DNA of 64,000 nucleotides from Thermoleophilia bacterium (GTDB lineage Bacteria; Actinomycetota; Thermoleophilia; Solirubrobacterales; 70-9), in the NCBI GenBank assembly GCA_016650125.1, contig JAENWT010000015.1, forward strand, positions 1-64,000. Reading direction: 5' to 3'. Both the position numbers and the translations under genes were made by a program. Positions 28,864 to 44,042 of the stretch are shown here, piece after piece. The notes beneath the pieces were generated by a model that was not told the origin of the DNA, did not search any database, and saw only the letters and a program-made list of their open reading frames with translations. The number at the start of each line of letters is the position of its first letter. Position 1 is the stretch's first letter.

Positions 28864-28866
28864 GGC

Positions 28867-29304
28867 TCAGCCACCCCCGCCGGCGGCTTGGCGAAGTTCG
28901 GTTTCGAGCATGTCGACCGCGACCCGGGTCGGACAGACCGTCCGCAGTCCCTGGGTGCCGTACCACTCGGCCCGCAGCGGATCGAGGATCCGGGCGATCA
29001 CCGTCTCGACCTCATACCGCCGCTGGGCGATCTGGGAGATCACGATGTTCGTGTTGTCACCGTTGGTGGCCGCGACGAATGCATCCGCCTTGCTGATACC
29101 TGCCGCTTCGAGCGCGTCGACCTCGAGCGCGGTCCCGACCGCGAACATGCCGCCGGCCACTTCCCAGCCACCTTCGAGGCCGACTTCGAGCCGGGCGTGG
29201 GACTCGGGATCCTGATCAAGCACGGACACGGTGTGGCCGTCCTCAAGCATCGCACGGGCCAGCGACGAACCGACCCTGCCGCAACCAACGATCAAAACGA
29301 ACAT
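28867..29304 (-). CDS. TrkA N-domain (RCK) protein, single domain
   Basis: 145 aa containing only the Rossmann RCK-N domain: LIVGCGRVGSSLARAM, the acidic SVLDQD strand end, and VAATNGDNTN. It lacks the TrkA-C ligand-binding domain and ends in a short Gly-rich tail. It is followed within 3 nt by the two-domain TrkA protein, so the two may form a hetero-oligomeric gating ring. It is preceded by an APC-USP permease, with a 24-nt gap. Confidence 0.8.
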   Translation of the reverse strand: MFVLIVGCGRVGSSLARAMLEDGHTVSVLDQDPESHARLEVGLEGGWEVAGGMFAVGTALEVDALEAAGISKADAFVAATNGDNTNIVISQIAQRRYEVETVIARILDPLRAEWYGTQGLRTVCPTRVAVDMLETELRQAAGGGG

Positions 29305-29328
29305 CGGATTATCCTATCCAGCTCTGCG

Positions 29329-31242
29329 TCAGGTGGGTGGCGCCGTGAGCAGGACCCGGCAGGGGGCGCGTTTGAGCACGTAAGCAGTGACCGGTCCGAT
29401 TTCCTCAGGCCGGGAATCCCCGGTGCCGCCGAGCATCCAGCCGCCCTTGATCGGGCTGGGCGGCTCGGACCCGAGCACGATCGCGTCGGCCTCCCGGCGC
29501 CGGGCGGCGTCGATGATCCCACTGCCGATCTTTCTGGTCCGCACGATCTCGACCCCGACTTCGACGTCGGCGTATTCCTCCGCGACCTCACGCGCCCGCT
29601 CCGACGCCCGGATCGCCTCAGCCTCCAGCTTCTCGTCGATCAGCCCTTCCAACTCGAGTGACATCGGCACCTCGATCAGGTATAGGACGGTGAGCCGAGC
29701 GCCCCCCTCCACCGCGCCGGCGTCTTCGTCCGCCGCCAGGCGGCCGGCCGTACTGACGATGTCATCGTCCAGTTTCGTGCCGAAGATCGGCACGATGATG
29801 TTGTGGAGGCTGACCGAGATCTTCGGGCGGGTAAGCGCGTGCGCGTCGACCGTGACCTGTTTGGTCAGGCTGACCTGCTCGATCCCCTTGCGGTAGATCA
29901 CGTATCCGACCAGGCCGAACAGCAGCCAGCTCAGGCCGACCCAGCGCGCGGCATCGTGGAGCAACACCACCGAGATCAGCGCCAGACCGCTGAGCAGCGC
30001 ACCGGCAACGGCCGGCAACGGGACCGAGGTGCCGCGAAAGTTCACGCTGCCGGGAATGCGGTATGGCCGCACGCGGTCGGGCTCGTCCCGCCTCAGCTTG
30101 ATCACCGATACGTGGGCGATGGTGATCGCGAGGGTGGCACCGAAGGCATAGATCCCGGCCAGCAGCTCGACGTTGCCGAGCAACGCGAGTGCGAACACGG
30201 CTGCGGCACAGATCAGGATCGCTTTGTACGGGACCTCGTACCGGCGGCCGAGCTGGCCGAGCCAGCTGGGGATCTGGCGATTCACTGCCAGCGTGTAGGT
30301 GTGCCGCGAGACTCCAAGCATGGCCGTGTTGGCCGCGAAGACCAGCAGCGGCGCCGCGATCAGCGCGACCAACCAGCGCATCCAGGTGGCCACCCAGTGC
30401 GGCTCGTAGGCAGAGACCACCCCCAGGACCGGCGCCTCGATGAACTTGCCGCCCAAAGCCGTACCGGGCTCGACCGGCCCGGAGACCACCGGGACCGCCA
30501 TCAGCGCGACCACGGCCATGCCGGCGTAGAGAACCGGCACCAGCCAGGCGGACCGCACCACGACCCGGCCGAAGTCCTTCGGGTTCAGATTCAGGTCGGG
30601 CGCAAGGTTGGAAACGGCCTCGATCCCGGCGTAGGCCAGCATCGCCAGGACCGTCGCGTAAACCGCGTCGGTGAAGCTCGGTGTGGTGAAAAGGTGGATC
30701 TGGTCGGTCAGGCGGTCCGGATGGAGGACCACGATCAGGCCAACGACGATCACCAGGAGCTGAAGCAGCAGGTCGGCCAGCGCCAGCCCGATGAGAGCCC
30801 TGGGCCGGCGCCGGGCCGGGATGTCGAGCACATTCAGGGCGGTGATGTAAAGCACGATGCCGGCGGTGATGGCGGTCGTCCAGAACGTATTCAGAGGGCC
30901 GGTGATCGGCTCGAGGTAATGCGGCACCGTGAGCACTGCCAGCGCGATCACGATCAGGTAGTCGAGCAGGATCACCCAGGCGGCGACGAAGGCGACCAGC
31001 TCATTGAAGGCGTAGCGGGCCAGCGCCGAGGAGCCGCCGCGCTCGCGCAGCATCGCTCCGCCTTCGACGTAGGTCAGCATGGTCAGCACGAAGAGCAGGC
31101 CGGCGATCAGGAAGATGACCGGGGTCAGCCCCAGGCCACGTTTGGCGACGACGCCGAGCGCGAAGTAGATCGAGAAGCCGACCGACGCGTAGGTGATCGC
31201 GACGAGCCAGACAGCGGCGGACCCACGGCTCCTGTGCTTCAC
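29329..31242 (-). CDS. APC-superfamily permease with C-terminal USP domain (second)
   Basis: 637 aa with about twelve membrane helices, an AYAGIEAVSN segment in helix 6 and GGSSALARYAFNE in the early helices as in APC transporters. The soluble tail (about residues 470-637) has a universal-stress-protein fold (HNIIVPIFG, then ADAIVLGSEP). KimA, a K+ importer of the APC superfamily, also has a cytoplasmic USP-like domain. With RCK genes next door, an ion or osmolyte role is plausible, but amino-acid transport is the default. The ATG overlaps the upstream small gene stop (ATGA). Confidence 0.75.
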   Translation of the reverse strand: MKHRSRGSAAVWLVAITYASVGFSIYFALGVVAKRGLGLTPVIFLIAGLLFVLTMLTYVEGGAMLRERGGSSALARYAFNELVAFVAAWVILLDYLIVIALAVLTVPHYLEPITGPLNTFWTTAITAGIVLYITALNVLDIPARRRPRALIGLALADLLLQLLVIVVGLIVVLHPDRLTDQIHLFTTPSFTDAVYATVLAMLAYAGIEAVSNLAPDLNLNPKDFGRVVVRSAWLVPVLYAGMAVVALMAVPVVSGPVEPGTALGGKFIEAPVLGVVSAYEPHWVATWMRWLVALIAAPLLVFAANTAMLGVSRHTYTLAVNRQIPSWLGQLGRRYEVPYKAILICAAAVFALALLGNVELLAGIYAFGATLAITIAHVSVIKLRRDEPDRVRPYRIPGSVNFRGTSVPLPAVAGALLSGLALISVVLLHDAARWVGLSWLLFGLVGYVIYRKGIEQVSLTKQVTVDAHALTRPKISVSLHNIIVPIFGTKLDDDIVSTAGRLAADEDAGAVEGGARLTVLYLIEVPMSLELEGLIDEKLEAEAIRASERAREVAEEYADVEVGVEIVRTRKIGSGIIDAARRREADAIVLGSEPPSPIKGGWMLGGTGDSRPEEIGPVTAYVLKRAPCRVLLTAPPT

Positions 31243-31436
31243 GACTTGCTCCCGAAGCTGTCCTGGAACCGGTACCGCAGCACGCCTATCCCGATGAATA
31301 TGACCCCGAGGATCACGCCGGTCGAAAACGGCCCGCCGCCGCGGGACAGGGTCAGCGCGAGGATCACGACGCCGATCACCACGAAGACGAGCGACATGGT
31401 CTTGACGATGAAGTTGTAGGCCGTCTCGGACTTCAA
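31239..31436 (-). CDS. Small membrane protein (65 aa) between two APC permeases
   Basis: Two hydrophobic helices (about residues 9-29 and 37-52) are joined by LSRGGGPFSTG and followed by a polar tail (RYRFQDSFGSKS). It overlaps both neighbours by 4 nt (ATGA at each end), so it is translated in step with the two permeases. It may be an accessory subunit; no family is recognised. Confidence 0.65.
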   Translation of the reverse strand: MKSETAYNFIVKTMSLVFVVIGVVILALTLSRGGGPFSTGVILGVIFIGIGVLRYRFQDSFGSKS

Positions 31437-33319
31437 AGGATCGGGACCTCGGTCACGTCGGGGCCGTCGGACACGACGATCACCCGGCAGGGACGCTCGC
31501 GCAGAACCGTCTCCAGCGTCTTGCCGTAGAGCGGTGCGCCACGCCGGAAATGGAGCCCGATGACCAGTGCCGCGGCTTTGATCGCCTTGGCCTGCCGGGC
31601 CAGCGAATAGCCCTCCTGGCCAGGGCGCACGCGCTCGACCTTGCCGCTCACCCGGGTGCCGGCAACGAGCTTGGCGCGCTCGATCTTGGTCTGGGCAAGC
31701 TTCTCCTCCTCACGCATCGCCCCCTGGAGCGGCAGGTGTTTGGGCACGGTGAGCAGGGCCACGATGTGGATGCCGCGGCGGCGCTTCGAAGCGAGTTTGA
31801 CCGCCGTGGCCATCATGTCCTCGGAGAAAGGCTCGTCGGCCGGGAAGGCGATCATGACGCTCTTGTACTCGAGTTCCTCGACACCGAGCGGTTCGGGCAA
31901 CAGCACCTTGACGGTCTCCGACAGCGGCAGCTGGTGATGCCGACGATAGAGATAGTAGATCGTCCCGCCGACGACCAGCCAGCCGATTCCGACGGCAAGC
32001 GTCACCGGGTTGAGTGCCATCACCACCAGCCAGGCGGCGAAGGTGCCCAGCCCGCCCAGCACCGCGGAGAACGGGATCGAAGCGCCGAACCAGTTGAAGT
32101 TGAGGCGCGGCTTCCATTGCCGCTCCTTGTCCGGGAACTTGCGTCTGAGCTGGATGACCGCGGCGTGCGCGATCGTGAACGAGAGCATCGCACCGAAGGA
32201 GTACATCGTCGCCAGGAACTTGGCCTGGCCGGGGATCAGGGTGATGATCGCGAGGACCGCGAAGAGGATGATCGCGATGTACGGGGTCCGGTATGTCGGG
32301 TGGATCTGGCGCACCACCTCCGGCAGCTGCCGGTACTGCCCCATCGAGTAGCTCAGCCTGGAAACGCCGATAAGGCCCGCGTTGGTGGCGATGATCAGGA
32401 TGACCGCGGCCAGCACACCGACGTAGATCCGCAGGATGTCGGTCAGGCTCTGGCCCAGGCCGAGGTTTTCGACGATGCCGAGGATCGGGTCGTCGGCGAA
32501 GGTAGTGCCGAGTTCGGTGACGTAGTTGCCGGCCTGGTCCTGGAACACGGGCATCGCGGAGAGCGCGACGATCGGGATCAGCAGGTAGAGCGCCATCACC
32601 GCGATGACCACGAGCGCCACGCCCTGGGGCACCGACTTGGCGGCGTCGCGGGCCTCCTCGGACATGTTCGAGATCGTTTCGATGCCGGTGTAGGCGATCA
32701 TGCCGACCGCAATCCCGAGGGCGAAGTCGGACCAGCTCGGGGCGACACCGAGGTGAACGTTGGAGACAAGGATGTCGGGATCCAGCACGAGGAACAGGCC
32801 GATGCCGACCAGGATTATCTGGGTGGCCAGGTCGGCCACGGCGAGGATGATGTTGAGCCTGGCCGATTCCTGCCCGCCGCGGATGTTCAGCCAGGCGAGG
32901 AAGATGATCAGGATCGCGCCGCCGATCACGTCCCCCGGCGAGTTGCCGAGCGCCGGCCAGAAGACCGCCAGGTAGTGCGGCACGAAATAGGCCGAGATCG
33001 CGACCGTGATCGTGTAGTTCAACATCTGGCCCCAGGCCGCGATGAAGCTCACGACCTCGTTGAAGGCGTGGCGGGCGAAGCTCGATGAGCCGCCAGCCTC
33101 GGGATACATGACCGTCGCCTCGGCGTAGGACGCTGCAGTACAGACGAAGATCACTCCGGCGATGAGGAAGGCGAGCGGGGTCAGGCCGAGCGCGAAGGCC
33201 GCTGTGACGCCGAGGGCGTAGTAGATCGACGAGCCGACGTTGCCATAACCCGCCGAGAAAAGAGCGCCTGCCCCGTAGACGCGGCTGAGACTCTGATCGC
33301 GTGGTATTCGCTCAGCCAC
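31433..33319 (-). CDS. APC-superfamily permease with C-terminal USP domain (first)
   Basis: 628 aa, with twelve predicted helices and a USP-like cytoplasmic tail (about residues 475-628: KSVMIAFPADEPFSED, AAALVIGLHFRRGAPL, PCRVIVVSDG). Helix landmarks YPEAGGSSSFARHAFNE and AYTGIETISNMSEEA match the amino acid-polyamine-cation superfamily. It resembles the second permease throughout, so the pair arose by duplication and may form a heteromer. The start is GTG 33319. It is the first gene of the five-gene permease/RCK operon. Confidence 0.75.
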   Translation of the reverse strand: MAERIPRDQSLSRVYGAGALFSAGYGNVGSSIYYALGVTAAFALGLTPLAFLIAGVIFVCTAASYAEATVMYPEAGGSSSFARHAFNEVVSFIAAWGQMLNYTITVAISAYFVPHYLAVFWPALGNSPGDVIGGAILIIFLAWLNIRGGQESARLNIILAVADLATQIILVGIGLFLVLDPDILVSNVHLGVAPSWSDFALGIAVGMIAYTGIETISNMSEEARDAAKSVPQGVALVVIAVMALYLLIPIVALSAMPVFQDQAGNYVTELGTTFADDPILGIVENLGLGQSLTDILRIYVGVLAAVILIIATNAGLIGVSRLSYSMGQYRQLPEVVRQIHPTYRTPYIAIILFAVLAIITLIPGQAKFLATMYSFGAMLSFTIAHAAVIQLRRKFPDKERQWKPRLNFNWFGASIPFSAVLGGLGTFAAWLVVMALNPVTLAVGIGWLVVGGTIYYLYRRHHQLPLSETVKVLLPEPLGVEELEYKSVMIAFPADEPFSEDMMATAVKLASKRRRGIHIVALLTVPKHLPLQGAMREEEKLAQTKIERAKLVAGTRVSGKVERVRPGQEGYSLARQAKAIKAAALVIGLHFRRGAPLYGKTLETVLRERPCRVIVVSDGPDVTEVPIL

Positions 33320-33426: not shown

Positions 33427-33906
33427 TCAGGATGTCCCCCAGGCCCACTGCAGGGCCAGCGAAACGGCCTCTGGCGTCGATTCGGTGACTTTGAAGGCAA
33501 CCGGCATCGCCGCCTTCATCTCGGTGACCAGATCGGTGCCCGGATCAACCTCGAGGGTGAACCGGGCCCAGTCCCCTTCGCGCTTCACGCCTTTCACCTG
33601 GCGTACGCCCGGGAGGCCGCGAAGGGTGGCCTCGGCGACCGCGGCCATCGCCAGTTCCGGCAGCGGCGAAACCGTGACCGCCATCTCAAGGCCGTCATCC
33701 ACTTCCTCCGGGCGCGGAGCCGGTTCAGGGACCGGCTTCACCACCGGTGCCGCTGGCTGCACCGGGCCGAGTGACTCGACTGCGGCCATCAGCGAAGCGA
33801 CCTGATCGCCGAGGGTCTTGAGCTCACGGCTGATCGCGGTCGCGGAAGTCCTCAGACTCTCGACCTGCTCCTGATTCATCGCGTGGCCTTCCTCATCCTC
33901 GGACAC
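33427..33906 (-). CDS. Coiled-coil plus small alpha/beta domain protein, paralogue of the 42.8 kb gene
   Basis: 159 aa from GTG 33906, which has GGAGGAGG 8 nt upstream; an ATG at 33936 lacks proper spacing. The N-terminal helix (LRTSATAISRELKTLGDQVASLM) is followed by a Pro-rich linker and a C-terminal domain. That domain reads VTVSPLPELAM, GLPGV, GD, then a final MPVAFKVTES. It aligns without gaps to the protein at 42790-43308. The fold resembles ferredoxin-like (ACT/HMA) domains. A promoter TTGCGA/TAGTAT lies just upstream. Function unknown. Confidence 0.6.
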   Translation of the reverse strand: MSEDEEGHAMNQEQVESLRTSATAISRELKTLGDQVASLMAAVESLGPVQPAAPVVKPVPEPAPRPEEVDDGLEMAVTVSPLPELAMAAVAEATLRGLPGVRQVKGVKREGDWARFTLEVDPGTDLVTEMKAAMPVAFKVTESTPEAVSLALQWAWGTS

Positions 33907-33945
33907 GCTGGGTACCTCCTCCGAACGAACGCTCATCTCCCGGAC

Positions 33946-33973
33946 ATACTAGTTGAGCTACGACTGATCGCAA
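33946..33973 (-). promoter_or_regulatory. Promoter of the distal coiled-coil paralogue
   Basis: On the minus strand TTGCGA (33968-33973) and TAGTAT (33946-33951) are separated by 16 bp. Transcription would start near 33939 and lead into the Shine-Dalgarno of GTG 33906. This suggests the gene can be expressed separately from the glycan operon that precedes it. Confidence 0.5.
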
Positions 33974-33993
33974 AGGACCGGCTCGGAAAAAAA

Positions 33994-35583
33994 TCAGGGT
34001 GAATATATCTGGGCGGAAATGACGCACCAGTTCTCGTCCGGGTTCGGGTCGTTCGCTTTCCAGCGCGACGACACCAGTATCCGTTCGCCAGTGTTCAGCT
34101 GGAGGAAGAGCATCCCGTTGTTCGGCAACTTCGAGGCCAGCGGCCCGGTCTTCTGGGTCACCGCGAAATCGTCCGAGCCTTCCCGGGTGATGATCTTGCC
34201 GCCGGTCGGATTGTCGATGGTGAGCCGCCTGACCCCGCTGCGCCCGGCCTCACAGACCGCCTTGACTTCGCCCAGTCCGGGGAAGTCGACCGTGCTCACG
34301 GTGTTTTTCTCGGTGGCGTTGCGCTCGCGGCGCCAGACGATCTGCACCGAACGGGCGACCGGCTTGCTCTCGAGTTCGGTCTGGGTACGGAAGGTCGCAT
34401 TGACGTGACAGCGGGCGCTCTTCGGCTGGCTGAAGTCCCACTCCCAGTCCATGTCCAGGGTGGTCGGCGGAGCCAGGCTCGTGCCACCCGGGACCTCGAT
34501 CGGGCCGCGGTCGGAGATGATCCCCTGGAAGGCGCCGGTCGAGTACTTCTCGGGCGGGCCGAACTTGTTCAGGCCTTCACGGAAGTCGGGGCCGGTGCCA
34601 CGGGCGTATTTCGCCTCGCGGAGTGCCTTCTCGCTGTAGGTTCCCCAGTTCTTGTAAGTCCAGTTCATCATCGCCGCTTCACGCTTGCCGTTCGACGGGT
34701 AGAAGCGGATCCACTGCTGGTTCTGGTTGCAGACGATCTCTCCGTAGCCGATGCCGGGCGCGATGAAGCCGCCGGTCGAGCGCCCCTCGGACGTGCCGCC
34801 ACTCCAGCCGATCGTGACCCTCTGAATCTGCTCGCCGGTCTTGCTGACGGGCTTGGCACCACCGCCGCCGCGGACGAAGCGGAACTTCTGGACCGAACTG
34901 CGGTAAGTGCTGTCACCGACCTCCAGGCCATACAGGCGCACCCGGTACTCACCGGGAGCGAGGATGCCGTTGATCGGAAGCTCGGCGATGATCTGTTTGC
35001 CGGAGAGGTCGGGGATGACCTGCTCGGCGACCGTGGCGCCCTTCGAATTGATCAGGTTCACACGAACCCGGCCGATCGCGGTCCGGCGCACCGGCTGGAG
35101 AGTGAATCGCACGTTGCCCGCGTTGTCGCGGACCTTCGTGCTGTACGGCAGGGCCTTGAGCGGCAGGGTCGGGGCCTTGAACCTCCAGCCGCTGCTCCTG
35201 GTCCGGGAGTTCTTGCAGCCGCCCTTGCGCGCCGTGACTTCAATCCGGTACTTGCCGCGGCCGACCGAGCGCACCCGCTTGAGGTGGACGATCGAGGTGC
35301 GGCCGCCGGCCAGACGGCCGGTGATCCGGCCCTTGAGGTAGACGTTGCCGCCACGGATGACCTTGATCCGGGCAGAGTGCACCTTGCCGTTGGTGCGCAC
35401 GTAGACCCAAGCCTGCGCCTTTTCGAGCAACGCGGTCGGGTCGTGCGAGCTCAGCTTGACCGAGAGCGGCAGGCGCTTGCAGTGGTTGCCGGCCGAAGCG
35501 GGCGCAGCGAAGACCGCGACACCCAGAAAGATGGCGACGACGGCTGAAACTGAGAGAGAAATTGTACGAGGCACGGTAATCAT
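33994..35583 (-). CDS. Secreted multidomain protein of unknown function (529 aa)
   Basis: A signal peptide (residues 1-32, ending APASA) is followed by beta-rich segments. Residues about 33-150 look Ig/Big-like with basic repeats (RIKVIRGGNVYLKG) and two Cys. The middle and end carry conserved Trp/Gly/Cys segments (GYGEIVCNQNQQWIRFY and FSQPKSARCHVNATF). No catalytic motif is seen. ATG 35583 has AGAGGTG upstream. It follows the PstS-like gene by 50 nt and probably belongs to the exopolysaccharide operon as an exported matrix or surface protein. Confidence 0.6.
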   Translation of the reverse strand: MITVPRTISLSVSAVVAIFLGVAVFAAPASAGNHCKRLPLSVKLSSHDPTALLEKAQAWVYVRTNGKVHSARIKVIRGGNVYLKGRITGRLAGGRTSIVHLKRVRSVGRGKYRIEVTARKGGCKNSRTRSSGWRFKAPTLPLKALPYSTKVRDNAGNVRFTLQPVRRTAIGRVRVNLINSKGATVAEQVIPDLSGKQIIAELPINGILAPGEYRVRLYGLEVGDSTYRSSVQKFRFVRGGGGAKPVSKTGEQIQRVTIGWSGGTSEGRSTGGFIAPGIGYGEIVCNQNQQWIRFYPSNGKREAAMMNWTYKNWGTYSEKALREAKYARGTGPDFREGLNKFGPPEKYSTGAFQGIISDRGPIEVPGGTSLAPPTTLDMDWEWDFSQPKSARCHVNATFRTQTELESKPVARSVQIVWRRERNATEKNTVSTVDFPGLGEVKAVCEAGRSGVRRLTIDNPTGGKIITREGSDDFAVTQKTGPLASKLPNNGMLFLQLNTGERILVSSRWKANDPNPDENWCVISAQIYSP

Positions 35584-35633
35584 GATGTCAACACCTCTTA
35601 AACCGCCAATCAATGCGAAAGTAGCGGGGGTGC

Positions 35634-37055
35634 TTATTCGCCTTCGGCGGCTTGCTTGTTGCTCTGCTTGGCCGGCATCGAAGCGATGTCATAGAAGATG
35701 ATGTCCGGTTGCGACGTTCCGTCGAGCCAATCCTGCTCGGTGACCTGGACTTCGTCCGGCAGCGGCACCAGGGCGGCCTCTTCGGCCTGCTTCTGCGAAT
35801 TGGCGAGGGCCGAAGTGAGGAAGTCGTTGATGTCCGAGTCGTTCATGTTCTTCAGGTTCACGGTGAGCAGCAGCTGGCGCGACAGCGGGTAGGTCGCGTT
35901 GGTCACGGTGGCCTGCGACGGGAAGATGCATTCCGGCTTGCGGAAATCGTTGCTGGAGCTGACTTCCATCGGCCGCAGCTGCTCTTCGAAGGCTTCGTAG
36001 TACGAAAACCGGAAGAGGCCCATGGTGCCGCGGACCGATTCGATCCGGCGGGTCGCGTCGCGGTTCGCCCTGACGTAACGCCGCGAGTCCTTGGTGTCCG
36101 TCTTGAGGCTCTTCAAGGTCTTCTCGGCGTTGTCGAGGATGCGCTGATCCCGCTCCTTGGCCGACTTGCTGCGCTTGTCGCGGATGCCCTTGGCCTTCTC
36201 GTCTTCGGCGTCCTTGACCGCCTGCTTGGCGTCGGCGATCGAAGCGATGATCTGTTCGAAGACTTTCTGGGAAGGCGCAAATTCCTGGGCCGCGAGGGAA
36301 TCGCGGTTGGTGCCGACAACGGCGCGCCTGACGCCGGCATCGGTCGAGTAGGCTTGGTAGTCACCGCGGACCGAGAGCAGGGTCGGCTCATCGTCGCCGA
36401 GCACGTACTGGCCGAAGAAGCTGAAGACGTTGGAATCCTCATCCGGTCCGGCGACCTTCATGCGCGGTGCGCTGGCATCGAGGGTTACGTCGTGGTCGTA
36501 CCCGACCTGGGCCCAGGTGTTGATGCCCGATCCCGCCTGGAAGATGTTGCGGACCTCGTCGAAGCTGAGGCAGTCCACGCCGACGTCGGTCTCGTTCTTG
36601 ATCGCGAGGACCGCGGCGTCGGAGGCAATCTGGAACTGGACGGGCTGGATGCCGCGGGCGATGCATTGGCGGTACTCACCGGGAGAGATCGGCCGGGCCG
36701 AGTCGACGATGTCGTTCTGACCGGCGCAAAAGGCGTCAAAAGCGGTCTGCTCGTTGCCGCCGGTGGTGGTGACCGAAGCGTTCCCGCCCTGAAGCTCGTA
36801 CGTGGAGACCAGACGCTCGGTGAGTGAACCCTGCGCCTTGCCGGCGATCCGGATGGTGCCTTCGTTTCGCGGCGTCGCCCGGGTGACCGGCTCGCTGGTC
36901 TTGCCTTCGGTCGGTTCCTGGAACGTGGCGGCGCTACCTGTGGCGCCGGCGCTCTCGGGTGCTTCGTCGGTATCGACACCACAGCCGGTGACCACGGCCA
37001 GCAGGGCGAGGCCGGCGATCAGTGCCGCGATTTTACGTTTGAGCGAGATCATCAA
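35634..37055 (-). CDS. PstS-like solute-binding lipoprotein with helical insertion
   Basis: 473 aa. The lipobox is VTGC. The periplasmic-binding fold resembles PstS: SVTTTGGNEQTAFDAF, DIVDSARPIS, INTWAQVGYD and GPDEDSNVFSFF occupy the ligand-loop positions. Between lobes, residues about 262-330 form a highly charged coiled-coil-like insertion (KQAVKDAEDEKAKG and SKSAKERDQRILDNAEKT), not present in ordinary PstS. No pstCAB genes are adjacent. It overlaps the upstream lipoprotein gene by 4 nt. It may bind an anionic glycan or phosphate at the cell surface; the ligand is unknown. Confidence 0.7.
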   Translation of the reverse strand: MMISLKRKIAALIAGLALLAVVTGCGVDTDEAPESAGATGSAATFQEPTEGKTSEPVTRATPRNEGTIRIAGKAQGSLTERLVSTYELQGGNASVTTTGGNEQTAFDAFCAGQNDIVDSARPISPGEYRQCIARGIQPVQFQIASDAAVLAIKNETDVGVDCLSFDEVRNIFQAGSGINTWAQVGYDHDVTLDASAPRMKVAGPDEDSNVFSFFGQYVLGDDEPTLLSVRGDYQAYSTDAGVRRAVVGTNRDSLAAQEFAPSQKVFEQIIASIADAKQAVKDAEDEKAKGIRDKRSKSAKERDQRILDNAEKTLKSLKTDTKDSRRYVRANRDATRRIESVRGTMGLFRFSYYEAFEEQLRPMEVSSSNDFRKPECIFPSQATVTNATYPLSRQLLLTVNLKNMNDSDINDFLTSALANSQKQAEEAALVPLPDEVQVTEQDWLDGTSQPDIIFYDIASMPAKQSNKQAAEGE

Positions 37056-38371
37056 TCCTGTCCGTCCGCCTGGGTGCCACCGGAGGTCTCGTCCACCGAG
37101 GAACCGGTCGGCCCCTCAAGCGCTACGTCGCCCAGCGGCGGGTCCTGGAAGACCTCCGGAAGCCCAACGACTTCGAAGTCATCAAGCGTGAGCCAGCTCA
37201 GCTCCGGGCCGGCGATGATCTGGGCCGAAGTACCACGCGGCGCATACAAGGTGGGTACGGCCGAGCGGTCGACCACGATCGCGCCGTACTGACGGAGCGC
37301 AACGAGGATCGATTCGGCCGAGCGCCGGCGAGCGCCGCTGAGAAGCACGTCGGGCTTGCCGTCATGGTTGTTGTCAGCCAGGTCACGGTCTTCGGCGGTC
37401 ACGTTGGCGCGCAGCCGGATGCGCGCACCGGCCGGCAGCGAGCGGCCGTTGCCGACGCCGTCGGTGACCGAGGCCGGCTGGACGTAGTTCCGCCGGGCGA
37501 TGCCGGGAACCGCGATCGCGAGCGCGTGGTTGATGCGGCCCTGCGAGGCCTCTTCCGAGCCGATCACGCCGGCGAAGAGCGGCAGGCCCGAGCCACGGGC
37601 ACCCGGGGCACGCTGGGGGTCCTCGGAGATCGGTTTGCTGAAGCCGGGGCCGTCGAGCGTCCAGGCTTTCGAGTACTGGAAGGAGATCGAGTTGTCGCTC
37701 TGGCGGCGGGCACGCCAGAAGTCGTAGCCCATGCCGGCTTCGGTGTCGATCACGCTGAGCCAGCCGTCGTACCGCGGGTCCGGCGTCGTGTTCGACGGGA
37801 TCGACAACTCGTCGGGCACGTCCGGGTCGGTCGAGCCGCACTTCGACTGGCGGCAGACGAACTTGGTGAGCTCGGCGCCGTTACCGCCGGCTTCGACGAT
37901 CAGCGGCGACCAGGCTTCAGTGTTGACGTAAAGACCCTTGGTAACCCGGCGGACGATCGTCTCGATGCCCTTCTGGCCCTTGGCCTCGCGCACGGCACGG
38001 CGCTCGCCGGCCAGGTCGAGCATACGGGCCGAGGATGGATCGATCGGCAGTCCGTCCACTTCGGTGTTCCAGGGACTGTTTGCGGCGAAGAACCGTCCGC
38101 CGGCGACACCCTCGGAACTGCTCGAGTCGTTGGCTGTGGTCGAGCCCGAAGTCAGGTTGGAGCCGGTGTCCGAAGAAGAAGAGTTCGAGTCGGGGTTGGC
38201 GTTCGGGTCGCTCTGGGCGTTGCCTCCGTTGTTGTAGCTCTGCTTGCTGGTGTTGTTCGAGTCCTCCGAATTGTTGCCATCGTCACCGCAGGCGGCGATC
38301 CCGATCGAAAGCGCGGCGACCAGCGAAAAGATGACCAGCCAGCGGCTGGATTGACTGAGCCGCTCCATCAT
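37052..38371 (-). CDS. Lipoprotein of unknown family in the glycan operon (439 aa)
   Basis: The signal peptide has lipobox IAAC, followed by about 60 residues of Asn/Ser/Asp-rich linker. The folded part starts at FFAANSPWN and contains KGLYVNTEAWSPLIVEA, DPRYDGWLSVID, YDFWRARR and GRINHALAIAVP. These conserved Trp/Asp/His positions resemble a family of secreted actinobacterial proteins without known function. A glycan-binding or glycan-modifying role would fit the operon. It overlaps both neighbours by 4 nt. Confidence 0.65.
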   Translation of the reverse strand: MMERLSQSSRWLVIFSLVAALSIGIAACGDDGNNSEDSNNTSKQSYNNGGNAQSDPNANPDSNSSSSDTGSNLTSGSTTANDSSSSEGVAGGRFFAANSPWNTEVDGLPIDPSSARMLDLAGERRAVREAKGQKGIETIVRRVTKGLYVNTEAWSPLIVEAGGNGAELTKFVCRQSKCGSTDPDVPDELSIPSNTTPDPRYDGWLSVIDTEAGMGYDFWRARRQSDNSISFQYSKAWTLDGPGFSKPISEDPQRAPGARGSGLPLFAGVIGSEEASQGRINHALAIAVPGIARRNYVQPASVTDGVGNGRSLPAGARIRLRANVTAEDRDLADNNHDGKPDVLLSGARRRSAESILVALRQYGAIVVDRSAVPTLYAPRGTSAQIIAGPELSWLTLDDFEVVGLPEVFQDPPLGDVALEGPTGSSVDETSGGTQADGQD

Positions 38372-40326
38372 TCGCCTTCCAGCTCCGGCGTTGAAGATCC
38401 GGCACCGCTGGACGGCGTGCCGGTCGAATTGCTCGGCGTGGTGCCGGAGCTGGCGCCGGAAGAATCTGTGGTGGTACCCGCGGTTGCTGAAGTCGATGTC
38501 CGCGGGCCGTCGTTATTCGGGGTCGGCGGCGTGACCGGGGTGATCGGGCGCGGGGTGCTCTGCGGCTGGTTCCCGGTGCCGCCCGCCCCCTGCTCTTCCT
38601 GAGTCCGCGGTTTGGTCGGCGCGACCTCGATCAGGACGTAACGGTCGGTCTTGAAGATCGGGGTCAGTCCGGCTTCGCCACCGGCGACGGCCTGCGGGAA
38701 GGTCTGGCGGAGCTGATCGCCGGCGCGACTGATCGAGACCAGCATGTAGCCGACCTTGCCGAAGGGACTGTCGCGGGTGGCTTCCCAGCCACCCTCGTCC
38801 TTGTCGGCGCGGTCGAAGAAGATGTACGGCCGGCCGCTGGTGATCATCGGGCCGTAACTGAAGTTCTCGTCGACGAGAACTGAATCGTCGACCTGTGGCA
38901 GCTGGGTGTTGATGTATTCGGCCATGCTGATTTCCGGATCGATGCCGACCTGGTAACCACCGACCGATTCAGTGCCCTCCTGGGAGTCCTGGTCGTCGAC
39001 CCAGCGGGTGAACGCCTGGGCCTGGTCCTGGTACTCGTAGTTCTTCATCGCGTCCCAGCTGAGCGGAATCGCCGCAACCAGGCCGATGACCATGATAATT
39101 CCGACACCTATCCGCCAACTCGGTTCGGCCGCGTAGACCCAGGCGGCACCGGCCAGTGCGAGTAGCGCCAGCGGCAGGCCGGCGGAAAGGGTCATCAGGT
39201 CGGCTTGATCAGCCACCAGGACACGCGTCATCGGCACCGCGAGCGAAAAGACGATCAGGAAGAACAGGCCCCATGACAATCCGTCGCGCACCAATATCCC
39301 TGAAAGAACCAGAAGGATCACGGCCGCGAAGCCGAGCGGAGCGACGCCAAGCACGACGCTGAAGAGGTCGCCGAGCGCGTCCATCGGGCTCGAGGTCACA
39401 GCCTGGAGGGCTCCGGTCGTGTTGACCTGGATCATGCCCGTCTGCGCGGTGACCCACCCGAAAGGACTGCTCAGGACGATCGCGTTGAGCAGGATCCAGA
39501 CCAGGAGGGCATAGATGATCGGGGTGAGGAAGAGGATCAGCGAGGACCGGCGGCGATCCTCGCGGTCGTTGTGGCCACTTCCGATCGACATGACCGCGAT
39601 CGCAAGGCCGACCGCCCAGAGGGCGTAGCCGTAATCGATCATGATCGCCGCGCCGATCGCCAGGCCGGCAGCCACGAGGTGGCGGGTTTCGTCGGTCAGC
39701 TGCCAGGAGATGACCGCCAGAAGGGCGATCGCGGCGAACACCATGCCGAGCACGGTGATCTCGCCGTTGGCGGCGTAAAAGACGAACATCGGGTTGAGCC
39801 CGAAGAGCAGCAGCATGATGATCCGGAAGACCCCGGGGACCTCACAGCGGCGAAGGATCGAGTTGATTATCGCCATCAGGAAGCCGGCTGCCAGCGCGGT
39901 CAGCACGGGGATCGCGGTCAGCGAGGTCGCAAAGGGTTTGATGATCGCCAGCGGCACGTAGGCCACGGCTCCGAGCGGCGGGGCCGCGAGGGTCAGGGCC
40001 GCCAGCTTGGGCGGGGAGTTCCACCAGGTCATGTACGCCTCGTTGAGGCGGTGGAGCGAATCGAAGTTGACGATGCGGCCGTCGGTCAGCATGAAGTAGC
40101 CGATGAGGCCGTAGACCACAGCGAAGAAGATCGCGACGATCCAGCCCTCTGCGCTGGCCTGCGGCGCACCGCGGCGCTCGACGGCTTCGTCGTAGATGAT
40201 GACCGGATCGTTCGGGTCCGCACCGGCGAAATCCTGGCGGACGCGGGCGAGTTCCTGAGCCCGCTGGGACTCGTCGACATCGACCTCGGTCACACTGGTG
40301 GTGCGAACGGTGCGCTCAGTGGCCAT
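38368..40326 (-). CDS. GT-C-like polytopic membrane protein (652 aa)
   Basis: A cytoplasmic N-terminus of about 70 residues, about eleven helices, and a large extracytoplasmic C-terminal domain with a Pro/Thr/Ser tail. The first outer loop (VNFDSLHRLNEAYMTWWN) carries an Asp at the position used by lipid-linked GT-C transferases (PMT/ArnT style), which use polyprenyl-phosphate sugars. The ATG at 40326 overlaps the upstream stop by 1 nt (TGATG); a longer frame is a shadow of the GT2 gene. The GT-C assignment is from topology and the loop, not from a full motif. Confidence 0.65.
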   Translation of the reverse strand: MATERTVRTTSVTEVDVDESQRAQELARVRQDFAGADPNDPVIIYDEAVERRGAPQASAEGWIVAIFFAVVYGLIGYFMLTDGRIVNFDSLHRLNEAYMTWWNSPPKLAALTLAAPPLGAVAYVPLAIIKPFATSLTAIPVLTALAAGFLMAIINSILRRCEVPGVFRIIMLLLFGLNPMFVFYAANGEITVLGMVFAAIALLAVISWQLTDETRHLVAAGLAIGAAIMIDYGYALWAVGLAIAVMSIGSGHNDREDRRRSSLILFLTPIIYALLVWILLNAIVLSSPFGWVTAQTGMIQVNTTGALQAVTSSPMDALGDLFSVVLGVAPLGFAAVILLVLSGILVRDGLSWGLFFLIVFSLAVPMTRVLVADQADLMTLSAGLPLALLALAGAAWVYAAEPSWRIGVGIIMVIGLVAAIPLSWDAMKNYEYQDQAQAFTRWVDDQDSQEGTESVGGYQVGIDPEISMAEYINTQLPQVDDSVLVDENFSYGPMITSGRPYIFFDRADKDEGGWEATRDSPFGKVGYMLVSISRAGDQLRQTFPQAVAGGEAGLTPIFKTDRYVLIEVAPTKPRTQEEQGAGGTGNQPQSTPRPITPVTPPTPNNDGPRTSTSATAGTTTDSSGASSGTTPSNSTGTPSSGAGSSTPELEGE

Positions 40327-42551
40327 CAGACTTCCGCCCTGCGCGGCGTGCGGCCGGAGGAGTTCGAGCCGCTGGCGCCGACATCGATGCCGTGCTCGGT
40401 CTTCTCCCAGTAGAACGGGTTCGTGAAGAGCTGGACGAAGCCCTTCCAGGCCGCGATCGACATCAGGCCCCAGTAGAACGGCAGGAACAGGGCGTAGGGC
40501 GCGAGCGAATGATCGCCGCGCCGGACCGAAGCCGCGAGGCCGAGGTACATGAAGACGAAGTTGCCCAGGAAGAGCTGTGCAGCCGCCAGGTAATAGACCC
40601 AGCCAGGGAACAGCTCCTGGATGAACCCGGTCTGGGTGAGCGCGAACAGAGTCGTCAGGAACCAGAAGATCGGGTTGATCAGGAAGATGAAGGTGCCGCC
40701 GATCAGGAGCTGGAACGACACGAAGCCCTTGAAGCCGAGATTGCTCATCAGGCGGAAGGGATTGCGCATGTAGACGAGCCATGTCTGGAGGTAACCCTTG
40801 ATCCAGCGCGAGCGCTGGCGGACCCAGCTGCCGATCTCGGTGTTCGCCTCTTCGTAAGTGGTCGAGTCCATCATCGTCGTGCGGAAGCCGGCCTGGTGCA
40901 GCCGGACGCCGAGGTCAGCGTCCTCGGTGACGTTGTAAGGGTCCCAGCCACCGACTTCGACCAGCTGGTCGAGCTTGATGTGGTTCGAGGTGCCGCCGAG
41001 CGGGATCGGGTCCTTGCGGGCGTCAAGGCCGGGCAGCACGAGGTCGAAGAGCATCGCGTACTCGATCGAGAACCAGCGGGTCAGGAAGTTGGTTTCCTGG
41101 TTGAAGAAGTTGAGCTTGGCCTGGATGCAGACGACCGTGTCGTCGATATTCTCGAACATCAGCACGGCCTTCTTCAGCTGGCTGGGATCGGGCCGGTCCT
41201 CGGCGTCGTAGATGACGACGTACTCGCCCTTGGCGCCGAGCAGACCGTAGTTGCAGGCCTTGGGCTTGGTCTGTGGCTGCGACGGCGGGACGACGATCGG
41301 CCGGAAGTGCGGCGGCAGCTCCATCGCGAGGATCGCGGCGATCGTCTCATCATCGTCTTCCTCGCAGAGCAGGCGGACGTCGAGCTTGGTCTTCGGATAG
41401 TCCAGCGAGTTGATGCCTTCGACCAGGTACGGGGTGACCGCGGCTTCGCGGTAGAGCGGGACCAGGACGGTGTAGACGGGCAGGTTCCGCTCGTCCATGG
41501 CCGCCAGGGCCTCAGGTGTCGTCTCCAGAAGGTACCGGTGCTCGAGCGCGGACAAGCCGGCAGTCAGCTTGTAGAACGAAGCCAGGGTGTAGAAGATGCT
41601 GGCCAGAGCGAAGACCACAACCAGTGTGTCCAGCGTCTTCCAGATCAGGAAGCCGATCAGGACCAGCACCAGGATGCCTAGGAATGCCTTCTGAACGCCG
41701 CTCAGGACGAGGTGGGCCGAGCTGTCCGGGAAACGGTCCCGCAGGTTCGAGCGCGCCGTCTGTGTGTACGCGGCCCCGTGGATGCGGCGGAGCAGCTCGC
41801 CGATATCGTTGCGCGGCGCCAGGAACTCCTGGATCTCAAGGTCGGAATAGTGGCCGATTTCCCGACGGGCCTCGTCGCTCAGCGCATCCGGCACCGCGAG
41901 GAAGAGGTTGCGGCTGTCGGCGGCGATCGGCACTACGTGGAGCCGGCGCGCGACCGGCTCGGGAACGATGTCCCGGGGGGCTTCGGTCGCGTCGAATTCG
42001 GAAAGGTCGATGGTCGGCAGATGGAGCGTCTCGGAAAGTACGCGGAGCAGGGCCTTCTCTTCGAGGGCGCCGCCGTGGACGAGGACCTCGCCGATGCGTC
42101 CGCCCGAACGTTCCTGCTCGGCGATGGCCAGGCCCAGCTGCTCTTCGGTGACCAGACCACGTCCGGCCAGCTGCTCGCCGAGCCGCGGCGGGATCGCCAG
42201 GCCATGGCTGACCAGGTCTCCGGCCGAGAACTTGGCACCCGATTCGGTCTCCGCAGATCCGTTGGCGGCGAAGAGCCGGTCGATCGCTTCGTCGATCTCG
42301 TCCCGGTCGGCGATCACCCAGCTGGGTTCATAGCCGGTCTCGGCAAGGATCACGTCGGCGGCGGCGAAGTTGCTGTCGGAAGTGGAGACGACGGTCAGGT
42401 AGCCATCGCCGTATTCGACCGGGATGACGTGGTACTCGCGACAGGTTTCGGCCGGAAGGAGATGGGCGACGGCCGGGGTCAGCGTGACCATGCGCTCGCT
42501 GACGCCATGCACGTCGTCGCGGACCAGCATTTTCTCTCCGGTCATCGGCAT
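40326..42551 (-). CDS. NfrB-like GT2 glycosyltransferase with c-di-GMP-binding MshEN domain
   Basis: 741 aa. Residues about 25-95 and 196-258 are GspE-N-type alpha/beta modules. Between them is an MshEN tandem motif: RLGEQL...GL...EQL...EQ at 123-146, a 5-residue linker, then RIGEVL...GAL...ALL at 152-175. This 24-5-24 layout is that of high-affinity c-di-GMP receptors. Two helices (288-330) precede the GT2 core with VLVPLYRE, YDAED (448-452), TED (542) and QRSRW (579-583), the processive signature. C-terminal helices follow. E. coli NfrB has the same parts in another order. It should polymerise a glycan when c-di-GMP is high. Confidence 0.85.
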   Translation of the reverse strand: MPMTGEKMLVRDDVHGVSERMVTLTPAVAHLLPAETCREYHVIPVEYGDGYLTVVSTSDSNFAAADVILAETGYEPSWVIADRDEIDEAIDRLFAANGSAETESGAKFSAGDLVSHGLAIPPRLGEQLAGRGLVTEEQLGLAIAEQERSGGRIGEVLVHGGALEEKALLRVLSETLHLPTIDLSEFDATEAPRDIVPEPVARRLHVVPIAADSRNLFLAVPDALSDEARREIGHYSDLEIQEFLAPRNDIGELLRRIHGAAYTQTARSNLRDRFPDSSAHLVLSGVQKAFLGILVLVLIGFLIWKTLDTLVVVFALASIFYTLASFYKLTAGLSALEHRYLLETTPEALAAMDERNLPVYTVLVPLYREAAVTPYLVEGINSLDYPKTKLDVRLLCEEDDDETIAAILAMELPPHFRPIVVPPSQPQTKPKACNYGLLGAKGEYVVIYDAEDRPDPSQLKKAVLMFENIDDTVVCIQAKLNFFNQETNFLTRWFSIEYAMLFDLVLPGLDARKDPIPLGGTSNHIKLDQLVEVGGWDPYNVTEDADLGVRLHQAGFRTTMMDSTTYEEANTEIGSWVRQRSRWIKGYLQTWLVYMRNPFRLMSNLGFKGFVSFQLLIGGTFIFLINPIFWFLTTLFALTQTGFIQELFPGWVYYLAAAQLFLGNFVFMYLGLAASVRRGDHSLAPYALFLPFYWGLMSIAAWKGFVQLFTNPFYWEKTEHGIDVGASGSNSSGRTPRRAEV

Positions 42552-42793
42552 CAGACGGTGCCCCTGCGGCGAGCCTGGTCGCGTTCGAGCAGTTCGGCTG
42601 CCCCGACCCGCTCGACTTCGACCGTATTGTCGGGCTCACGCCGGCTGCGCCTGCGGTCGCTGATCATCATCGTGACTATGCCGGCGACGAACAGGAAGAA
42701 CGGCAGGATCAGGAACACGCTGAACATGAGCGTGAACAGGATGAGCACGCCGATGACAAAGAAAAGCGTGCCGATTGCCCCGCCGCCGTTCAC
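42551..42793 (-). CDS. Small membrane protein of the glycan operon (80 aa)
   Basis: A short N-terminus, two closely spaced hydrophobic helices (about residues 7-28 and 29-46), and a basic/acidic cytoplasmic tail (SDRRRSRREPDNTVEVERVGAAELLE). It overlaps the upstream gene by 4 nt (GTGA) and the glycosyltransferase start by 1 nt (TGATG). Small subunits of this kind accompany several polysaccharide synthases (for example PgaD), so an accessory role is likely. No family is recognised. Confidence 0.6.
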   Translation of the reverse strand: MNGGGAIGTLFFVIGVLILFTLMFSVFLILPFFLFVAGIVTMMISDRRRSRREPDNTVEVERVGAAELLERDQARRRGTV

Positions 42794-43308
42794 GAACCGT
42801 CTTGGCCGGCCACGCCGTCCCTACGCTCGCCCACTGGTTGGGCAAGCGCGATGGTGAACGATCCCTTGTCGGAATCGGTCACGTCAAAGGCAACTGGAAG
42901 TTTGCGTCGCAGCGAAGTGATCAGTGAAACACCCTCGTCGACCCGGGCGTCGATGGTCGCCGAATCGCCCCGGAGTTCACGCAGGTTGGAACTCTCGACA
43001 CCCTCGGTCTCGGCCAGGGCCTGCTCGACGGTGCGGGCCATGCTGAGGTCATGAAGCGGCTGGATGACGACCTTGATGTCGCGGTCGGTCGGCAGCTGGA
43101 AGTCGGCACTCGTGACCCTGTCGGCGCTCGGTGCGCTGGGTGGCTTCACAGGAAGGGAAGGAGTCTTGGGCGCCGAACCCTCACTCGGGGGAGCAGATGG
43201 CTTCGAACCCGAATAAAGGCGTTCCTCGAGTGCGTCGAGGCGGCTCGACATCTCGCGACGAAGTTCCCTGATCTCCCTGAGGATGTCTTGTTTTTTGCTC
43301 TTAGCCAA
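42790..43308 (-). CDS. Coiled-coil plus small alpha/beta domain protein, first gene of the glycan operon
   Basis: 172 aa. The N-terminal coiled coil (ILREIRELRREM...LDALEERLY) is followed by a Ser/Pro-rich linker and a C-terminal domain VVIQPLHDLSM, EGV, RGD, LPVAFDVTDSD. This domain aligns without gaps to the protein at 33427-33906, with PL, L, GV, GD and PVAF-VT shared. The start is TTG 43308 without a clear Shine-Dalgarno; ATG 43251 is an alternative that shortens the coil. It may be an adaptor or sensor for the synthase. Function unknown. Confidence 0.6.
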   Translation of the reverse strand: MAKSKKQDILREIRELRREMSSRLDALEERLYSGSKPSAPPSEGSAPKTPSLPVKPPSAPSADRVTSADFQLPTDRDIKVVIQPLHDLSMARTVEQALAETEGVESSNLRELRGDSATIDARVDEGVSLITSLRRKLPVAFDVTDSDKGSFTIALAQPVGERRDGVAGQDGS

Positions 43309-43356
43309 GTTTTAACGTGATGATACAAGCGTCAACGGATGGTAAAGGCTATCCTT

Positions 43357-43370
43357 CGAGTGACCACTCG
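43357..43370. promoter_or_regulatory. Inverted repeat in the glycan operon leader
   Basis: CGAGTG-AC-CACTCG is a perfect 6-bp inverted repeat about 40 bp downstream of the predicted transcription start and 50 bp before the first gene. It could be an operator or a leader hairpin. Confidence 0.35.
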
Positions 43371-43411
43371 TTGCGAAGCCACCCGACGGGCTGCCTGACT
43401 CAAGTTGCTCA

Positions 43412-43440
43412 CTATAGGTGAACAACCTGAGAATCGTCAA
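43412..43440 (-). promoter_or_regulatory. Sigma70-type promoter of the glycan operon
   Basis: On the minus strand TTGACG (43435-43440) and TATAGT (43412-43417) are separated by exactly 17 bp. The -10 lies inside an imperfect inverted repeat GTTGCTCAC...GTGAACAAC (43404-43426, 8 of 9 pairs), a candidate operator. The transcription start would be near 43405, giving a leader of about 100 nt before TTG 43308. Confidence 0.7.
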
Positions 43441-43451
43441 ACGATGAATTT

Positions 43452-43921
43452 TCAGATTTTTACGGAAATTGGTTCGTTGACGTAAAAGCCCTGCGCATAG
43501 TCCACTCCCCACTCCTTCAAGAGGTCAAATCCAGCTTGGTCGGAGACGAATTCTGCGACGGTTTTGCGACCCGCGACCTTCGCTGCATTGACGATCGAAT
43601 GGACCACCGCCTGGTCGACTTTATTCTGGGCGAGCCGCTCGATGAAGGTTCCGTCGATCTTGATCAGGTCGAGCGCTCGCCGTCCAGCAGCTCGTCGCGC
43701 CAGTTCGCCGACTCGTCGGAGATCTTCGGGATCAGGCGGTAGGCGGGCATGCCTTCGAGCTCGGCCCGGGCGTAGCCGGTCAGGATTTCGAGCGCGGGAT
43801 TGGCGAAAACGATCGAGCCACCGATGTTGTGGTCGTATTCGACGATGGCCATACCGCTTGGCGCCGCCGCAAAAACCCAGTCGAGCAGTTCGATCTGGTC
43901 AGTTGTCGCACCCCTCCACAT
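43452..43921 (-). pseudogene. Decayed PAS...EAL (c-di-GMP phosphodiesterase) gene
   Basis: Reading from ATG 43921 (TACGCT lies exactly 6 nt upstream), a PAS domain is recognisable: LLDWVFAAAPSGMAIVEYD, SIVFANPALEILTGY. The frame stops at 43664. In a different frame, 43452-43679 encodes the C-terminal third of an EAL domain: LIKIDGTFIERL, HSIVNAAKVAGRKTVAEF, then LLKEWGVDYAQGFYV. The EAL motif itself, any GGDEF domain and most of the EAL barrel are missing. An internal deletion with a frame change explains both halves. It lies directly upstream of the glycan operon, whose promoter begins 12 bp past its end. Confidence 0.75.
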
Positions 43922-43960
43922 ATTCAGAGCGTACGCCCTAATCGAAGTCGGTGACAGCGC

Positions 43961-43993
43961 AACAAAAAGCCCCGGCCGGGTGGCCGGGGCTTT
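43961..43993 (-). terminator. Rho-independent terminator of the pyrophosphatase gene
   Basis: AAAGCCCCGGCC and GGCCGGGGCTTT (43966-43977 and 43982-43993) form a perfect 12-bp stem with a 4-nt loop. On the minus strand the stem is followed by TTTTTGTT. It lies 50 nt past the pyrophosphatase stop. It also shows that the PAS frame cannot sensibly begin upstream at 44011. Confidence 0.9.
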
Positions 43994-44042
43994 CGTCGCA
44001 GATTCCTGCATATGCGTTTAGCTTTTCGTCCAGATACTTGTC

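What the first reader, a model, noticed from the sequence alone, without database searches (positions are those of the whole stretch)
33427..43440. Probable c-di-GMP-gated exopolysaccharide system with a new gene set
Seven minus-strand genes from 43308 to 33994, six of them overlapping by 1 or 4 nt, encode an NfrB-like processive GT2 with a complete MshEN motif pair (residues 123-146 and 152-175), a GT-C-like membrane protein, a small membrane protein, two lipoproteins and a secreted protein, with paralogous coiled-coil proteins at both ends. MshEN domains bind c-di-GMP, and E. coli NfrB is a c-di-GMP-responsive synthase. I know of no described system with this combination, but I cannot search databases.
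Basis: partly seen in the sequence, partly recalled or inferred. Interest (0 to 1): 0.85.

Follow-up and report, generated by a model that had tools for sequence, protein, structure and literature searches.

The report
c-di-GMP-gated polysaccharide operon in Actinomycetota
A conserved, unstudied set of soil-bacterium genes looks like a machine that builds an external sugar polymer, carries a built-in sensor for the signal molecule c-di-GMP, and appears to have lost that sensor's binding residues in one large group of relatives while keeping the rest.

Summary
The operon is real. The glycosyltransferase (GT) has two MshEN matches and a complete processive GT2 core. GT, GT-C-fold protein, lipoprotein g5, PstS-like lipoprotein g6 and secreted g7 recur together in Solirubrobacterales and in Nocardioides, Aeromicrobium and Jatrophihabitans. 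In 299 class genomes, 17 of 19 with g7 and 16 of 17 with strong g5 also have the GT.

Corrections: the second MshEN half-motif ends in T175 where most close relatives have Q. Resemblance to NfrB is confined to the MshEN part; the GT part is nearer BcsA. The MshEN-GT2 plus GT-C-fold pair is not new: it spans Bacillota, Bacteroidota, Alphaproteobacteria and others, with a BcsB-like partner in Gram-negatives, and published descriptions of xag and sfz/sfb clusters match it. What is new is the BcsB-less actinomycetotal gene set.

c-di-GMP gating is well supported for the window's clade: intact binding residues, and a diguanylate cyclase divergent beside the operon in four close relatives. It is not universal: Nocardioides keep the operon with degenerate binding residues and few or no GGDEF genes. 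In the window the cyclase site holds a PAS/EAL remnant.

Best reading: synthase-dependent exopolysaccharide, c-di-GMP-activated in this clade; polymer unknown. New variant of a known kind.

The parts
42790..43308 (-). g1: 172-aa protein, N-terminal coiled coil, Pro-rich linker, C-terminal small domain; paralogue of g8
   Evidence: ORF; g1/g8 blastp 29%, E 2e-13; homologues at the same place in L031-L036
42551..42793 (-). g2: 80-aa small membrane protein
   Evidence: ORF; homologues directly upstream of the GT in L031-L034 and L036; similar-sized small membrane proteins (clusters 5 and 49) at that place in Nocardioides and Patulibacter
40326..42551 (-). g3: 741-aa processive GT2 with N-terminal MshEN region (c-di-GMP motif 123-175), GT domain about 354-640 with DAED, TED, QRSRW
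   Evidence: Pfam and NCBIfam; PDB relatives PilB/MshE for residues 114-262 and BcsA for 295-651; catalytic residues kept in 79-80 of 80 homologues
38368..40326 (-). g4: 652-aa polytopic GT-C-fold membrane protein with an extracytoplasmic C-terminal domain
   Evidence: AlphaFold pLDDT 83.8; Foldseek and VIA matches to ArnT, PMT, OST; PMT_2 matches in 6 of 36 homologues
37052..38371 (-). g5: 439-aa lipoprotein with a conserved globular domain of unknown fold
   Evidence: ORF; alignment A1 with 45 invariant columns; no Pfam match; model pLDDT 70.9, no clear fold match
35634..37055 (-). g6: 473-aa PstS-like lipoprotein with a helical insertion (about residues 239-338)
   Evidence: PBP_like_2 4e-13, TIGR02136 95 bits, below its cut-off 206.6; PDB 4jwo E 1e-46 in two blocks
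33994..35583 (-). g7: 529-aa secreted protein (539 aa if TTG 35613 is the start), no known family
   Evidence: Signal peptide in sequence; 17 of the 19 genomes with a homologue also have the GT
33427..33936 (-). g8: 169-aa paralogue of g1
   Evidence: conserved after g7 in L031-L035
43452..44011 (-). broken PAS plus truncated EAL (phosphodiesterase) remnant upstream of the operon, where close relatives carry a GGDEF gene
   Evidence: EAL profile positions 169-236 only; PAS match; the PAS and EAL pieces are in different frames

Best explanation
The operon encodes a synthase-dependent exopolysaccharide machine. g3 polymerises a nucleotide sugar and passes the chain through its own membrane helices; c-di-GMP binding to its N-terminal MshEN domain switches synthesis on in this clade. 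g4, a GT-C-fold membrane protein, works on the emerging chain at the outer face, most simply by adding a sugar from an undecaprenyl-phosphate donor, or as a structural partner replacing BcsB. Exported g5, g6 and g7 bind, modify or anchor the polymer outside; the g1/g8 paralogues and g2 are accessory subunits. Shown: gene content, domains, catalytic motifs, conservation, co-occurrence, adjacent cyclase in relatives. Inferred: export, c-di-GMP activation, decoration by g4, roles of g1, g2 and g5-g8. Polymer chemistry is unknown; a beta-linked hexose polymer is the guess.
For: MshEN and GT2 domains. DAED, TED and QRSRW kept in at least 79 of 80 homologues. Five of six core c-di-GMP-contact residues in the window, 4-6 in all Thermoleophilia scored. 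GGDEF gene divergent directly upstream in L032-L035 with GGDEF/GGEEF and an inhibitory-site RxxD, and another about 4 kb upstream in L036. Six GGDEF and three EAL hits in the own genome. Motif state goes with GGDEF count across 57 genomes (Spearman 0.55, not corrected for relatedness). GT-C fold of g4. In Paenibacillus a GtrB-type undecaprenyl-phosphate sugar transferase (best PDB match 5ekp, E 1.6e-69) lies between GT2 and the g4 homologue, as expected if g4 uses a lipid-linked sugar. GH5 cellulase-family gene 300-750 nt upstream of the GT in 22 Actinomycetia loci. BcsB-like gene upstream in Gram-negative relatives.
Against: No binding, activity or polymer data. T175 replaces a c-di-GMP-contacting Gln. 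The usual adjacent cyclase is absent in the window. The operon persists in Nocardioides with degenerate binding residues, so c-di-GMP is not essential to its basic function. The motif/GGDEF association rests on about 4 changes on the tree; independent pairs are too few for significance, and Alphaproteobacteria (16-20 GGDEF, degenerate motif) do not fit it. The first-loop acid expected of an active GT-C is D/E in only 28 of 36 homologues.
Confidence: 0.7

Rival explanations
1. Same polysaccharide machine, but in this strain the MshEN domain is no longer an effective c-di-GMP switch: T175 and loss of the adjacent cyclase mark early decay, and control is by expression or another ligand.
For: T175 instead of Q; PAS/EAL remnant where relatives have GGDEF; the same domain has clearly decayed in Nocardioides.
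Against: Five of six core residues and the hydrophobic positions remain; NF053729 still scores 48 bits against a cut-off of 38; the genome holds other full-length GGDEF domains; L035, with an intact adjacent cyclase, also scores 5 of 6.
Confidence: 0.2
2. g4 is not a transferase but a catalytically dead GT-C-fold scaffold that guides or couples the chain, taking the place of BcsB.
For: First-loop acid not invariant (28 of 36); the only invariant charged residue is D486 in the C-terminal domain; no BcsB in the own genome.
Against: In Gram-negative relatives a g4 homologue and a BcsB-like protein occur together; a GtrB-type donor-making enzyme is linked to g4 homologues in Paenibacillus.
Confidence: 0.25
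3. The operon makes or modifies a wall-bound glycan or glycoprotein rather than a free exopolysaccharide.
For: Several exported proteins, two of them lipoproteins; Gram-positive-type envelope; GT-C enzymes commonly modify wall glycans (family knowledge).
Against: Processive GT2 architecture nearest BcsA; BcsB-like partner in the wider family; GH5 cellulase-family gene linked in Actinomycetia; xag deletion affects biofilm in an rpfG mutant (PMC3609779).
Confidence: 0.15

Closest known systems
xagABCD (Xanthomonas) and sfz1-6 / sfb1-4 (stalk-forming Zeta- and Betaproteobacteria; PMC8250860, PMC4643136, PMC3609779)
   Same: GT2 with an N-terminal T2SSE/EpsE-type (MshEN) domain and DxD/TED/QxxRW motifs, followed by a roughly 500-residue protein of unknown function (Sfz3, the size of g4 homologues); biofilm or stalk polysaccharide role
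   Different: The sfz/sfb clusters have a BcsB-like protein and a glycosyl hydrolase; the window has neither in the cluster and no BcsB in the genome. g1, g2, g5-g8 are not described there.
E. coli NfrB/NfrA/YbcH (PMC8669469, PMC8669472)
   Same: GT2 fused to MshEN; c-di-GMP-activated exopolysaccharide; specific diguanylate cyclase
   Different: MshEN at the C-terminus, no GT-C partner, outer-membrane NfrA; window protein matches the NfrB model only in the MshEN part
BcsA/BcsB cellulose synthase
   Same: Nearest solved structures for the GT and membrane part; c-di-GMP control; a GH5-family gene in Actinomycetia relatives
   Different: No PilZ match, no BcsB, MshEN instead; cellulose synthase model CelA 76 bits against a cut-off of 699
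Three-component GtrA/GtrB/GT-C extracytoplasmic glycosylation (compare PMC11127046)
   Same: g4 has the GT-C fold; a GtrB-type enzyme is linked in Paenibacillus
   Different: Linked to a polysaccharide synthase; donor, flippase and catalysis not shown; no GtrB in the window operon

Membership tests
MshEN c-di-GMP receptor domain | 53-residue tandem motif RLGxx..Q / RLGxx..Q | tested here: met
   Residues 123-175, NF053729 48 bits over its cut-off of 38; one deviation, T175
MshEN c-di-GMP receptor domain | binds c-di-GMP | not testable with these tools
   needs ITC or DRaCALA
Processive GT2 polysaccharide synthase | DxD-type, TED and QxxRW motifs with flanking membrane helices | tested here: met
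   DAED 449-452, TED 542-544, QRSRW 579-583 kept in at least 79 of 80; hydrophobic segments in sequence
NfrB family | full-length match to the NfrB model | tested here: not met
   NF008411 51.9 bits against 1170, MshEN part only
Cellulose synthase (Bcs) | BcsB partner | tested here: not met
   no PF03170 match in the own genome, 95% complete
Cellulose synthase (Bcs) | PilZ domain in the synthase | tested here: not met
   no PilZ match among Pfam hits of g3
xag/sfz cluster | GT2 with N-terminal T2SSE/MshEN domain | tested here: met
   description in PMC8250860
xag/sfz cluster | BcsB-like first gene (sfz/sfb) | tested here: not met
   present in Gram-negative relatives of the pair
xag/sfz cluster | second protein homologous to Sfz3/XagC | not tested
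GT-C glycosyltransferase | GT-C fold | tested here: met
   ArnT 5f15 Z 21.0, rmsd 4.6, 403 aligned
GT-C glycosyltransferase | conserved catalytic acid in the first extracytoplasmic loop | tested here: inconclusive
   D/E in 28 of 36 homologues, position 89
PstS phosphate-binding protein of an ABC transporter | PstS family model over its cut-off | tested here: not met
   TIGR02136 95 bits against 206.6; helical insertion

The most novel reading that the evidence does not exclude
A distinct class of polysaccharide machine in which a c-di-GMP-gated synthase is physically coupled to a GT-C enzyme that decorates the chain as it leaves the membrane, with BcsB replaced in Actinomycetota by a dedicated set of exported proteins; in Nocardioides the second-messenger gate was lost while the machine stayed.
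Probability: 0.25. Interest if true: 0.7.

Novelty: new variant of a known kind. Interest (0 to 1): 0.55.

Why it matters
c-di-GMP-controlled exopolysaccharides in Actinomycetota are barely described in the library searched: a full-text search for Thermoleophilia, exopolysaccharide and c-di-GMP found one review, on quorum sensing. The operon supplies a concrete effector, a candidate partner cyclase and cultured species (Patulibacter, Nocardioides) to test. The same operon with intact and degenerate sensor residues is a natural experiment on how c-di-GMP control is lost. It may also join xag, sfz and this operon into one wider MshEN-GT2 plus GT-C-fold family, suggests a fold for the unexplained Sfz3/XagC proteins, and suggests that Sfz2's 'EpsE-like' domain is a c-di-GMP sensor rather than a secretion ATPase part.

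Tried and rejected
Pfam scan of g5 and 29 homologues and a profile search of the PDB: no family. Fold search of g5: no Foldseek match below E 1; the VIA second look gave Z at most 3.8, with some double-psi barrel proteins (MltA, barwin, cerato-platanin) at Z 2.4-3.0; too weak to use. A homology-driven gene caller gave antisense artefacts in these high-GC genomes and was replaced by a codon-usage caller. Phylogenetically independent pairs for motif state against GGDEF number: only 3, cannot reach significance, so the association is called suggestive. NCBIfam's c-di-GMP motif model still just passes for one Nocardioides copy (38.3 against 38), so 'degenerate' there rests on the contact residues, not on the model. 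A GtrB-like donor enzyme in the own genome: only a 24% identity GT2 hit, undecided.
Full report
Observation. The window carries eight consecutive minus-strand genes from 43308 to 33427. A codon-usage gene caller trained on conserved genes recovers all of them except g1, which is supported by homologues. g1 and g8 are paralogues (29% identity, E 2e-13).

The synthase. g3 has two Pfam MshEN matches and GT2 matches. NCBIfam's c-di-GMP motif model matches 123-174 at 48 bits, cut-off 38. Solved relatives are PilB/PilF/MshE for residues 114-262 and cellulose synthase BcsA for 295-651. DAED, TED and QRSRW are kept in at least 79 of 80 homologues. The NfrB model aligns only to the MshEN part, and NfrB has MshEN at its C-terminus (PMC8669469), so the protein is not an NfrB. 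In the second half-motif the last contact residue is Thr175; most close relatives have Gln. In Vibrio MshE the equivalent Gln61 contacts the ribose and phosphate (PMC5013675), so weaker binding is possible.

Conservation. A scan of genome contigs returned 80 relatives. GT, g4, g5, g6 and g7 lie together in Solirubrobacterales and in Nocardioides, Aeromicrobium and Jatrophihabitans. In 299 genomes of the class, 27 have the GT, 17 have strong g5 matches (E under 1e-99) and 19 have g7; 16 and 17 of these, respectively, also have the GT (hypergeometric p about 1e-18, uncorrected for relatedness). Weak g5 matches occur widely (114 of 299 genomes have some match), so g5 belongs to a larger secreted superfamily. 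A small membrane protein of g2's size precedes the GT in Nocardioides and Patulibacter too.

A wider family. GT plus a g4 homologue without g5-g7 is found in Paenibacillus, Sporolactobacillus, Mucilaginibacter, sphingomonads, Kryptonia and Syntrophobacterales. In many of the Gram-negative loci a BcsB-like gene lies upstream (PF03170 confirmed in three). This matches the described sfz/sfb clusters: BcsB-like protein, GT2 with N-terminal EpsE-type domain, a roughly 500-residue unknown protein and a glycosyl hydrolase (PMC8250860), which were earlier called xag-like (PMC4643136). In Xanthomonas, deleting xagA or xagB lowers the raised biofilm of an rpfG mutant (PMC3609779). The window genome has no BcsB.

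g4. AlphaFold model pLDDT 83.8. VIA-align gives Pmt4 Z 21.3 and ArnT Z 21.0 over 403 residues, so the GT-C fold is solid. The first-loop acid is D/E in 28 of 36, so catalysis is open. In Paenibacillus the gene between GT2 and the g4 homologue is closest to GtrB of Synechocystis (5ekp, E 1.6e-69), a polyprenyl-phosphate sugar transferase (family knowledge). That favours a lipid-linked sugar donor for g4, as in three-component extracytoplasmic glycosylation (PMC11127046).

Exported proteins. g6 is PstS-like (4jwo, E 1e-46) with a helical insertion and below the PstS family cut-off. g5 and g7 have no known family. In 22 Actinomycetia loci a GH5-family gene lies 300-750 nt upstream of the GT; L036 has one in reverse orientation.

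c-di-GMP control. In L032-L035 a GGDEF gene is divergent and directly upstream of the operon, with an intact active site and inhibitory site; L036 has one about 4 kb upstream. In the window that place holds a PAS fragment and the last third of an EAL domain in another frame. The own genome has six GGDEF and three EAL hits, the remnant among them. Scoring six contact residues (R, G, Q in each half), Thermoleophilia keep 4-6, Paenibacillus 4-5, Sporolactobacillus 4, Nocardioides 0-1, Mucilaginibacter 0. The genomes with score 4 or more have 3-56 GGDEF genes; most of those with 2 or less have 0-3. On a tree of the GT domain, the Nocardioides group is one supported clade among Thermoleophilia and Aeromicrobium stalagmiti, which keeps 4 of 6 residues and 12 GGDEF genes, so loss there is most simply one derived event. 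Alphaproteobacteria are an exception (16-20 GGDEF, score 1), and independent pairs are too few for a test. Xanthomonas XpsE is a known case of a non-binding MshEN caused by such changes (PMC5013675).

Verdict. A conserved, apparently undescribed, BcsB-less actinomycetotal version of the MshEN-GT2 plus GT-C-fold polysaccharide machine, probably c-di-GMP-activated in the window's clade. Binding, polymer and the roles of the other genes remain to be shown.

Noticed in passing
43452-44011: Remnant of a PAS/EAL protein (PAS start in one frame, EAL positions 169-236 in another) between the H+-pyrophosphatase gene and the operon, where close relatives have an intact GGDEF gene on the other strand.
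   Followed up: partly
28201-33319: Two amino-acid-permease-type transporters with C-terminal Usp domains, a small gene between them, then two TrkA-type proteins; KimA-like potassium uptake is a possibility (recalled, not tested). The permeases also follow g8 in L031-L035.
   Followed up: partly
L070:9728-12139: The Paenibacillus GT carries two c-di-GMP motif matches (116.8 bits in all), so possibly two binding sites.
   Followed up: no
L050, L051, L055, L056: g7 is present as two tandem copies.
   Followed up: no
L070:8207-9415: A sugar-nucleotide transferase of the NTP_transferase family (GDP-mannose type suspected) lies upstream of the Paenibacillus GT; a hint to the monomer there.
   Followed up: no
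L095:6462-7808: Mucilaginibacter copies have a histidine kinase gene next to the BcsB-like and GT genes, and L095's genome has no GGDEF, hinting at a change of control.
   Followed up: no
L017 and L030 (G184 contig 81): One genome has two copies of the GT about 10 kb apart, one with two in-frame stops.
   Followed up: no
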